From an uncultured Erysipelotrichaceae bacterium (lineage in GTDB: Bacteria > Bacillota_I > Bacilli_A > Erysipelotrichales > Erysipelotrichaceae): DNA of 64,000 nt. The notes beneath the pieces are model-generated. The model was not told where the DNA came from. It did not search any database and saw only the letters and a program-made list of their open reading frames with translations. The stretch lies in the NCBI GenBank assembly GCA_945877255.1, contig CAMCRE010000003.1, positions 62,001 to 126,000 on the forward strand. The letters are read 5' to 3'. The position numbers and the translations under genes are program-made. Shown here one piece after another: positions 27,036 to 59,573 of the stretch; position 1 is the stretch's first letter, and each line of letters begins with the position of its first letter.

Positions 27036-27052
27036 AAAAAAAATATTTATTA

Positions 27053-27136
27053 TGCACTCCCTACGTTAGTATTATCTAAATCAGGTATAAAAGGTCCAGA
27101 TTTTTCTTCTGTTCTCAGCTTACGCTCCCTCGTACA
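27053..27136 (-). ncRNA. TPP riboswitch (THI element)
   Basis: In minus-strand order one sees GAGGGAGC, GCUGAGA, ACCUUUUAUACCUGAU, UAGAUAAU and CUAACGUAGGGAGUGC, which are the conserved blocks of the TPP aptamer. UGUAC and GUGCA form P1. It controls the four-gene uptake operon downstream by transcription termination. Confidence 0.95.
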
Positions 27137-27167
27137 AATTTAATATAACATATTATTTATTTAAAAG

Positions 27168-56045: not shown

Positions 56046-56498
56046 TTATTCTCCACAACAGCAACTTTCATCACAGCAATCATCACAGTGGCAACTATGC
56101 ATATTTTCATATGCTGTTGTATCAATAGCCATTACTTCAATTTCAACTTTTACATCTTTTGGTAGTCTTGCAACTTCTACAGTTGAACGTGCTGGATATG
56201 GTTCTTGAAAATATTGACTGTACACTTCATTCACAGCACTAAAATCATTCATATCTTTCACAAATATTGTTGTTTTGACGATATGATACATTGCTAATCC
56301 ATTATCTTCTAGTAATGATTTAATATTTTCCATAACTTGTCTTGTTTGTGCTTGAATATCACCAGAAACGATTTCATTTGTGATTGGCGATAACGGAATT
56401 TGACCTGATAAAAACACAAAATCTCCTAATCTTACTGCTGGTGAATATGGACCAATTGCTTTTGGTGCATTGTCTGATTGTAATTTTCTTAAAAACAT
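56046..56498 (-). CDS. RidA-family deaminase with a cysteine-rich C-terminal tail
   Basis: A 150-residue protein. The first 125 residues are a normal RidA (IGPYSPAVRLGDFVFLSGQIP, then YPARSTVEVARLPKDVKVEIEVMAID, with the conserved Arg), which hydrolyses reactive enamines or imines. The tail adds HSCHCDDCCDESCCCGE, with seven Cys and two His in 17 residues, which I do not know from ordinary RidA proteins. It could bind a metal. GGAGGA precedes the ATG. Confidence 0.9.
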   Translation of the reverse strand: MFLRKLQSDNAPKAIGPYSPAVRLGDFVFLSGQIPLSPITNEIVSGDIQAQTRQVMENIKSLLEDNGLAMYHIVKTTIFVKDMNDFSAVNEVYSQYFQEPYPARSTVEVARLPKDVKVEIEVMAIDTTAYENMHSCHCDDCCDESCCCGE

Positions 56499-58571: not shown

Positions 58572-58600
58572 AAGCCCTATTGGATTGCTCCATCAAGGCT
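58572..58600 (-). terminator. Terminator after the CptN-like toxin gene
   Basis: On the minus strand AGCCTTGAT pairs, with one bulge and a wobble, with ATCCAATAGGGCT and is followed by TTTTC. It lies ten bases after the toxin stop. Confidence 0.65.
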
Positions 58601-58609
58601 TAACTACAA

Positions 58610-59080
58610 TTAATTTGTTGTTATCAGTGTGTATATTTTGTCTACATCTACAAAGAATACTTGTATGCCTTTTTTATGTAGAACAAGACATGTTTTCAAT
58701 TTACTCTGTAGCTCTTGCGTTAATTTCTTATGTAGTAATATGGGTTGATCGTTAATGGTATGAACATGATCAACATATTGTGCTATAACTGGAAATGCAT
58801 TTTGTATTAAAAACGAACTTTGCTTTCCGCCAAATTTCCCTAAAACAATCGTATCACATCTTCCTAATCTTTTTACTTTATCATCATGTATTTTTTGATA
58901 TTTAATGTATTGAGAACTAATAGGAATCATCCAGTACACATCTTTATTGTTAGAATCTTGTATTGCACAAAAATGTGGACGATATCCCCCATTTTCTTTA
59001 TTTGACATTAAACAGTTATCATTAACCAAAGTAAAAAATAAATCTTTTAGATGATAACTATACCCTTGATAAATTTGCAT
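58610..59080 (-). CDS. cptN: Type III toxin-antitoxin endoribonuclease, CptN-like
   Basis: A 156-residue protein that I recognise as a CptIN-family toxin: YHLKDLFFTLVNDNCLMSNKENGGYRPHF at the start, VYWMIPISSQYIKYQ, CDTIVLGKFGGKQSSFLIQNAFPV in the middle and IQVFFVDVDKIY at the end. Such toxins cut RNA and are inhibited by a repeat RNA encoded just upstream. That context is present: two 48-bp repeats and a terminator between them and this gene. GGGGTG precedes the ATG. No other function fits both sequence and layout. Confidence 0.82.
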   Translation of the reverse strand: MQIYQGYSYHLKDLFFTLVNDNCLMSNKENGGYRPHFCAIQDSNNKDVYWMIPISSQYIKYQKIHDDKVKRLGRCDTIVLGKFGGKQSSFLIQNAFPVIAQYVDHVHTINDQPILLHKKLTQELQSKLKTCLVLHKKGIQVFFVDVDKIYTLITTN

Positions 59081-59091
59081 TCCACACCCCT

Positions 59092-59121
59092 ATAAAAATA
59101 GCCCCATCCTAAGATGTGGCT
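59092..59121 (-). terminator. Attenuating terminator between antitoxin repeats and toxin
   Basis: On the minus strand AGCCACATC and GATGGGGCT pair (nine positions, one A-G mismatch) around TTAG, then TATTTTTATA. The imperfect stem would let some transcripts continue into the toxin gene, as in other type III systems. Its sequence recalls the GCCAC and GGGG parts of the repeats. Confidence 0.8.
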
Positions 59122-59216
59122 TTACAAACTGAATTATTTATACCCCACACCATCAGCAAGTGGCACTATTTACGTACTGAATTATTTATACCCCACACCA
59201 TCAGCAAGTGGCAAAA
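59121..59216 (-). repeat. Two tandem 48-bp antitoxin repeats
   Basis: Two copies with a period of 48 bases. The conserved core of 38 bases is identical in both (59128-59165 and 59176-59213; plus-strand start ACTGAATTATTTATACCCCA); the preceding TTTAC and the flanking bases are nearly the same. A third, decayed copy may be part of the terminator. Confidence 0.92.
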
Positions 59217-59289
59217 TCATCAATTAAATGGATTTTCAGTCTCCATTCTAATCAAGGATAGTAGGTTTAAGCACCCTTATCTTAACTAC

Positions 59290-59318
59290 ATTTTACCATA
59301 TCGTCATCCTTTGTTCAA
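59290..59318 (-). promoter_or_regulatory. Promoter of the CptIN locus
   Basis: On the minus strand TTGAAC (59318-59313), 17 bases, TAAAAT (59295-59290). It points at the repeats and is the only good promoter in the gap. Confidence 0.75.
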
Positions 59319-59496: not shown

Positions 59497-59573
59497 GGCG
59501 ATCGTGGTGAAGTGGTTAACACAGCGGGTTGTGGTCCCGTCATGCGTGGGTTCGAACCCCATCGGTCGCCCCA
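59497..59573 (+). tRNA. tRNA-His (anticodon GTG)
   Basis: A full cloverleaf. The anticodon loop TTGTGGT carries GTG; the T arm is GTGGG-TTCGAAC-CCCAT. The extra G-1 (59497) faces discriminator C (59570), the identity element of tRNA-His, and CCA is encoded (59571-59573). The acceptor stem pairs GCGATCG with CGGTCGC including a T-G pair. Confidence 0.98.

What the first reader, a model, noticed from the sequence alone, without database searches (positions are those of the whole stretch)
58572..59318. A CptIN-type type III toxin-antitoxin locus
The sequence shows a promoter (TTGAAC-17-TAAAAT), two 48-bp tandem repeats with an identical 38-base core, an imperfect terminator and then a 156-residue gene, all on the minus strand. 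This is the exact plan of type III systems. The protein reads like CptN toxins (WMIPISS, FLIQNAFPV). The repeats lie in a gap that gene callers leave blank, so the antitoxin RNA is easily missed. It stands beside a tRNA gene, a frequent site of accessory insertions.
Basis: partly seen in the sequence, partly recalled or inferred. Interest (0 to 1): 0.85.

Follow-up and report, generated by a model that had tools for sequence, protein, structure and literature searches.

The report
CptIN type III toxin-antitoxin locus
This is an ordinary but genuine CptIN toxin-antitoxin locus, in which a small RNA of two knotted repeats is expected to hold an RNA-cutting toxin in check; many related loci build that RNA from two or three different units rather than copies of one.

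Summary
The minus-strand ORF 58610-59080 is a CptN toxin: NCBIfam CptIN E 9e-54, 181 bits against a cut-off of 90; nearest solved structure 4RMO; AlphaFold model (pLDDT 90) against 4RMO Z 21.2, rmsd 1.9 A. Upstream lie two 48-nt units, a hairpin with a U run and a promoter-like site.

The antitoxin RNA was tested by covariation. In 84 distinct units, aligned by sequence alone, an H-type pseudoknot pairs in 99.2% of cells, with 139 double-change cells (shuffles: mean 52, largest 68). The loop keeps the A29 and U30 needed in E. rectale CptI.

It is a new member of a known family, with one match in its genome, among housekeeping genes; no tRNA-end repeat marks an insertion.

The more interesting result lies in the relatives: in 59 of 66 loci with two or more parsed units, the units carry different S2 helices, and TRF sees only 25 of the 66 arrays. 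The window is one of seven same-stem loci. No activity or transcript was shown.

The parts
59290..59318 (-). candidate sigma-70 promoter TTGAAC-17-TAAAAT with TG before the -10
   Evidence: not above shuffle expectation
59214..59285 (-). leader of about 70 nt between promoter and first unit, folds as a hairpin
   Evidence: -13.9 kcal/mol, z -2.32, 3 of 200 shuffles as good; a profile of the 5'-most unit of three-unit relatives has no real match in it (-0.6 bits; its 3.1-bit best match lies inside unit 1)
59166..59213 (-). antitoxin unit 1 (48 nt): S1 CCAC 59211-59208 / GUGG 59196-59193; S2 GCUGA 59205-59201 / UCAGU 59180-59176; loop UAUAAAU 59190-59184
   Evidence: base positions counted by hand
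59118..59165 (-). antitoxin unit 2 (48 nt), same stems: S1 59163-59160 / 59148-59145; S2 59157-59153 / 59132-59128
   Evidence: base positions counted by hand
59091..59121 (-). imperfect hairpin plus U run between antitoxin and toxin, expected to terminate most transcripts
   Evidence: -10.9 kcal/mol, z -1.59; not listed by the scan
58610..59080 (-). cptN toxin gene, 156 aa, ATG start with AGGGGTG ahead of it
58572..58601 (-). terminator-like hairpin after the toxin gene
   Evidence: -14.9 kcal/mol, z -3.24

Best explanation
A CptIN type III toxin-antitoxin locus. One promoter gives a short RNA of two pseudoknot units; a leaky terminator lets a minority of transcripts run on into cptN, so that antitoxin RNA exceeds toxin mRNA. 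CptN, an endoribonuclease of MazF-like fold, cuts the precursor in the A-rich single-stranded linkers (around GUAAA) and stays bound to the released pseudoknots of about 48 nt, which block its active site. If the supply of antitoxin stops (loss of the locus, or shut-off of host transcription), free CptN cuts cellular RNAs and arrests growth. Shown here: toxin family and predicted fold, locus plan, pseudoknot by covariation. Inferred from E. rectale CptIN and type III systems in general: co-transcription, cleavage, complex formation, toxicity. The most likely role is self-maintenance of the locus; phage defence is possible but was not observed for the two CptIN systems tested (PMC4627078, PMC5086642).
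For: NCBIfam NF047359 CptIN E 9.2e-54, 181 bits against a cut-off of 90; phrog_33519 E 2e-22; 4RMO by sequence E 4.8e-22 and by fold TM 0.86, Z 21.2. Two 48-nt units in the expected place. Pseudoknot: 99.2% of cells paired in 84 distinct units, against 34-44% when slid and a mean of 85.5% (largest 87.6%) when shuffled; 139 double-change cells against a shuffle mean of 52, largest 68. 58 of 65 upstream regions (window and the 64 loci) have at least two parsed units (from the tables). S55, S56 and K60 are invariant in 54 of 54 aligned toxins. The loop UAUAAAU keeps the equivalents of A29 and U30, whose change abolished rescue by E. rectale CptI (register by hand from L086).
Against: No transcript, toxicity or processing data. 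Pfam and PADLOC give no match and Rfam none for the RNA. The promoter is not above chance; the internal terminator is weak. In one search the number of further pair types (11) is no more than shuffles give (mean 11.0), and the units come from related loci, so the shuffle control is lenient. Nested folding of each unit is no better than shuffles (z +1.08 and +0.72), as a pseudoknot would give but also as no structure would. Tyr104 of E. rectale CptN is His107 here and the Arg after the Ser pair is Gln57, though His is in 49 of 54 relatives and Arg in only 3 of 54.
Confidence: 0.95

Rival explanations
1. A decayed or silent CptIN remnant: the genes are recognisable but the locus no longer works.
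For: The toxin sits on a long branch (0.6) with no close relative among the 55 rows of the tree; the promoter is at chance level.
Against: Open frame of full length with the invariant residues of the family; both units keep S1, S2 and the loop; hairpin after the gene.
Confidence: 0.06
2. The repeats are a cis regulator (attenuator or processing leader) of cptN rather than a diffusible antitoxin.
For: They stand directly upstream of the gene, with a hairpin between.
Against: E. rectale CptI rescues cells when co-overexpressed with CptN, and a single repeat suffices (PMC4627078 Results; the construct section was not read); the window units share its stem plan and loop.
Confidence: 0.03
3. The locus is a recent insertion at the tRNA-His gene, part of a mobile element.
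For: tRNA-His at 59498; relatives of cptN occur on 7 plasmid records at 25-37% identity and beside phage head-tail genes (L063); none of 59 kin genomes has a match over the family cut-off.
Against: No second copy of the tRNA 3' end in the window; flanks are whiA-yvcK-rapZ and CNNM/CBS and RidA-like genes. The 29 kin loci fetched around whiA carry neither tRNA nor cptN within up to 1.5 kb, so there is no clean empty site to compare.
Confidence: 0.2

Closest known systems
CptIN of Eubacterium rectale (PDB 4RMO; PMC4627078)
   Same: Locus plan, toxin family and fold (30% identity, Z 21.2), two units, S1-L1-S2-L2 pseudoknot order, loop with the A29 and U30 equivalents.
   Different: Unit 48 nt against 45; His107 for Tyr104 and Gln57 for the Arg after the Ser pair; loop and S2-S1 junction each one base longer in the window (by hand).
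CptIN loci mostly of Lachnospiraceae (L002-L055)
   Same: Nearest toxins, up to 60% identity over the full length; units spaced 45-49 nt; S1 CCAC/GUGG or CCGC/GCGG in most units, UCGC/GCGA or CCGU/ACGG in others.
   Different: Among those with two or more parsed units, only L022 and L039 have same-stem units like the window; 22 of all 66 arrays have three units.
ToxIN, AbiQ (PDB 2XD0, 7D8O, 4ATO, 4GLK)
   Same: MazF-like fold, Z 13.2-13.6; RNA pseudoknot antitoxin upstream (PMC5086642).
   Different: 10-12% sequence identity; units of 34-36 nt and hexameric complexes in the studied systems (PMC5086642); no family other than CptIN names the toxin in four libraries.

Membership tests
CptIN type III toxin-antitoxin | toxin belongs to the CptN sequence family | tested here: met
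   NF047359, 181.4 bits against a cut-off of 90
CptIN type III toxin-antitoxin | CptN fold | tested here: met
   model pLDDT 90; 4RMO TM 0.86, Z 21.2, rmsd 1.9 A over 150 residues
CptIN type III toxin-antitoxin | tandem repeats of about 45-48 nt directly upstream | tested here: met
   48 nt x 1.9; in the Table 3 rows seen in PMC6315513 cptIN loci have 45-47 nt x 2-2.2, in Fusobacterium 40-41 nt x 2.9-3.1
CptIN type III toxin-antitoxin | units form an H-type pseudoknot with A-rich L2 | tested here: met
   covariation in 84 distinct units; UAUAA in the loop of 120 of 155 parsed units
CptIN type III toxin-antitoxin | terminator between antitoxin and toxin | tested here: inconclusive
   hairpin with U run present, z -1.59, 17 of 200 shuffles as good; not listed
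CptIN type III toxin-antitoxin | active-site Ser-Ser-Arg | tested here: inconclusive
   S55-S56 present (54 of 54); Gln57 at the next place, where Arg is found in 3 of 54. That this place is the published Arg is my reading
CptIN type III toxin-antitoxin | toxicity, rescue by the RNA, processing, 2:2 complex | not testable with these tools
   needs experiments
ToxIN / TenpIN | toxin belongs to the ToxN or TenpN sequence family | tested here: inconclusive
   no such family at E 1 or better in Pfam, NCBIfam, PADLOC or PHROGs, but I did not check that each library holds those models; the named type III match is CptIN

The most novel reading that the evidence does not exclude
Type III antitoxins of the CptIN family are usually ordered heterotypic arrays: each position in the array carries its own S2 helix, kept by compensating changes across many genera, which hinders neighbouring units from exchanging strands during folding and makes the array resist loss by repeat slippage; the processed complexes may hold two different RNAs. 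The window would be one of the rarer loci whose units share one stem.
Probability: 0.42. Interest if true: 0.55.

Novelty: new member of a known kind. Interest (0 to 1): 0.36.

Why it matters
The locus adds a well-supported CptIN whose nearest toxins are only about 60% identical. It also exposes a practical point: the published criteria ask for a tandem array upstream of the toxin (PMC5086642), but TRF sees an array in only 25 of 66 loci that have two or three parsed pseudoknot units. Searching for the pseudoknot rather than the repeat should recover antitoxins that look absent, and the unit-specific stems make it testable whether mixed units matter for folding, stability of the array or assembly.

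Tried and rejected
Not preferred: ToxIN or TenpIN membership. Rejected: a third, degenerate unit in the leader (-0.6 bits there; the leader folds as a plain hairpin). Not supported: duplication of the tRNA end. Only partly borne out: the idea that neighbouring units cannot swap S2 strands. Adjacent swaps are limited to 4 pairs or fewer in both directions in 38 of 66 loci; 14 loci allow 6 pairs in one direction and 3 in the other, and 9 allow 5 or more in both. Nor is S2 the only part that differs between the last two units: the 3' tail is 60% identical and the 5' tail 67%, near the 58% of S2 (tail register follows the parsed stem length and is rough).

Led nowhere: phage records (no match); paper searches for unequal type III antitoxin units (in 47 and 64 the term ToxIN also matched the plain word toxin); 4 papers held at least 3 of the 6 terms, and none of the 4 held 'non-identical repeats', 'imperfect repeats' or 'divergent repeats'. 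Blower et al. 2012, the original survey, is not held and may already note unit differences. PMC8040213 (passages) reports candidate RNAs of 106, 68 and 38 bp upstream of 'ToxN' in Clostridiales and Leptotrichia; these may include the same RNAs, which I did not check.

Two earlier parsers were replaced: that gave 13 hits in shuffled regions against 171 in real ones, that missed units because its loop pattern was too narrow. Two units that one search placed in terminators (L006 at -36, L052 at -94) were dropped. One search misses the middle unit of L008 and L058, whose S1 has a mismatch.

Full report
OBSERVATION. The repeat is the best tandem array of the window (TRF score 172; the other nine rows score 54 or less). 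The promoter hexamers are real but of a quality that shuffled sequence gives as often, and the internal terminator is a modest hairpin.

TOXIN. The 156-residue product matches the NCBIfam CptIN model at 181 bits against a cut-off of 90, a phage family of unknown function (phrog_33519) and, among solved structures, CptN of E. rectale. Pfam and PADLOC give no match. AlphaFold2 on an alignment of 20 sequences (window and 19 relatives) gives pLDDT 90 and pTM 0.87. The model superposes on 4RMO at Z 21.2 and on ToxN and AbiQ chains at Z 13.2-13.6; MazF and CcdB chains follow at 10.4 and below. In 54 aligned toxins the Ser-Ser pair and Lys60 never vary; the place of Tyr104 of 4RMO is His in 49 of 54, the window included, and the residue after the Ser pair is Gln or Lys in 51 of 54. 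So the window belongs to a large branch of the family in which the residue that contacts the scissile adenine differs from the solved one. Only products of 135-200 residues were aligned: of 74 read, 20 that came out shorter or longer (for instance because the locus was on the other strand or the contig ended) were left out.

ANTITOXIN RNA. A profile started from the window unit found 124 units in 62 of 79 upstream regions and none in 395 shuffled ones. The 79 were the window, the 64 loci and 14 loci; four of the 14 (L076, L077, L078, L083) carry the match on the minus strand, so the stretch read there was not the true upstream. Aligning the 84 distinct units by sequence alone and laying the pseudoknot of the window on them gives 99.2% paired cells. 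Slid versions give 34-44%, shuffled columns a mean of 85.5% (largest 87.6%); cells changed on both sides number 139 against a mean of 52 (largest 68) in 500 shuffles. The number of further pair types (11) is not above the shuffles. The units come from related loci, so shuffles are a lenient control; the slid versions (at most 22 double-change cells) keep relatedness. Examples: CCAC/GUGG and CCGC/GCGG in S1; GCUGA/UCAGU, GCCGA/UCGGU and ACCGA/UCGGU in S2. The locus L086, whose CptN is 98% identical to 4RMO, carries a 45-nt unit. Counted by hand, it fits the positions named in PMC4627078 (abstract, Introduction, Results and Discussion read): U4, G13, U23, A27, A29, U30, A31, A33, G35, G44 and A45 agree; position 6 reads U where the paper says C. 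On that register the window loop GGUAUAAAUAAU keeps A29 and U30, whose change abolished rescue there.

UNEQUAL UNITS IN RELATIVES. A structure parser was applied to 74 upstream regions: the window, the 64 loci, and nine loci (L072, L073, L075, L079, L084, L086, L089, L090, L091) that I chose after seeing them, so these nine are not a fair sample. It found at least two units in 66 (44 with two, 22 with three; one region with one, seven with none). Without the nine, 58 of 65 have at least two. Of the seven empty regions, three have under 80 bases before the contig ends (L026, L042, L060), in L051 the match start falls inside the array and L056 has two evident repeats that the parser missed; in L057 and L062 it finds none. 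In 59 of 66 loci the units have different S2 cores (55 of 58 without the nine). The seven same-stem loci are the window, L022, L039, L072, L075, L079 and L086. Between the last two units, identity is 87% in the S1 5' strand, 77% in the loop, 67% in the 5' tail, 60% in the 3' tail and 58% in the S2 5' strand. The stems recur by array position: CCGU, CCAC, CCAC arrays with three unlike S2 helices in Lachnoanaerobaculum (L002, L004, L005) and in L029, L035 and others; GCUGA then GCUAUAC in many Lachnospiraceae. TRF reports an array in 25 of 66. The loci are related: on the toxin tree the same-stem/different-stem trait needs 4 changes among 51 labelled rows (46 different, 5 same; the E. rectale toxin is in twice, as ER and L086), so 59 of 66 is far from 59 independent events. 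The parser requires pairing and is biased to structure; shuffled regions give 0.008 units each.

SETTING. Of 60 genomes searched (own and 59 kin), 6 have a match at E 0.001 or better, the own included, and only the own passes the cut-off. Of 392 genomes of the phylum, 11 match E. rectale CptN, the own included; one of them, in the window's family, does so at 72% identity over 102 residues. On the toxin tree the window is a lone branch beside Lachnospiraceae toxins, its place open. Neighbours are whiA, yvcK and rapZ on one side and CNNM/CBS and RidA-like genes on the other. WhiA was found in 36 of 37 genomes; in the 29 kin loci fetched, no tRNA and no cptN lies within up to 1.5 kb. Relatives sit on 7 plasmid records and in 3 viral contigs, in one of them beside phage head-tail genes (4 of 7 ORFs tested match such families); 50,697 phage records gave no match. 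So the family moves; nothing marks a recent move here.

LITERATURE. [quoted passage not shown] PMC6315513 (passages) lists gut cptIN loci: 45-47 nt x 2-2.2 in the rows seen, 40-41 nt x 2.9-3.1 in Fusobacterium. PMC12373285 (passages) and PMC8040213 (passages) mention RNAs upstream of toxins; I saw no statement on unequal CptI units, but the RNAs of PMC8040213 may overlap with these. Searches for the point. The original survey could not be read.

VERDICT. A true CptIN locus, a new member of a known kind, supported by sequence, predicted fold and RNA covariation. Interest is modest for the locus itself and somewhat higher for the unit diversity that it led to.

Noticed in passing
upstream regions of L002-L055, e.g. 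L003 at 86-179 bases before cptN: CptI arrays of two or three pseudoknots with different S2 helices by position, most of them not seen by tandem-repeat search.
   Followed up: partly
L073, L084 (genome G124) and L076 (G143): CptN matches in one-contig genomes of 0.9-1.0 Mb with in-frame TGA, possibly read as Trp there (L073 also has an in-frame TAA); G124 has two copies about 2 kb apart, the one of L073 with three antitoxin units.
   Followed up: no
L067-L069 (genomes G044, G040, G045): CptN-like matches below the family cut-off inside longer open frames of 274-279 aa; no unit found in the 500 bases before the match.
   Followed up: no
window 56046-56498 (-): RidA-like protein (PF01042) with an odd Cys/His-rich C-terminal tail.
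   Followed up: no
window 27041-27141 (-): TPP riboswitch, 66.9 bits.
   Followed up: no
L063: CptIN beside phage tail and head-closure genes in a viral contig.
   Followed up: partly
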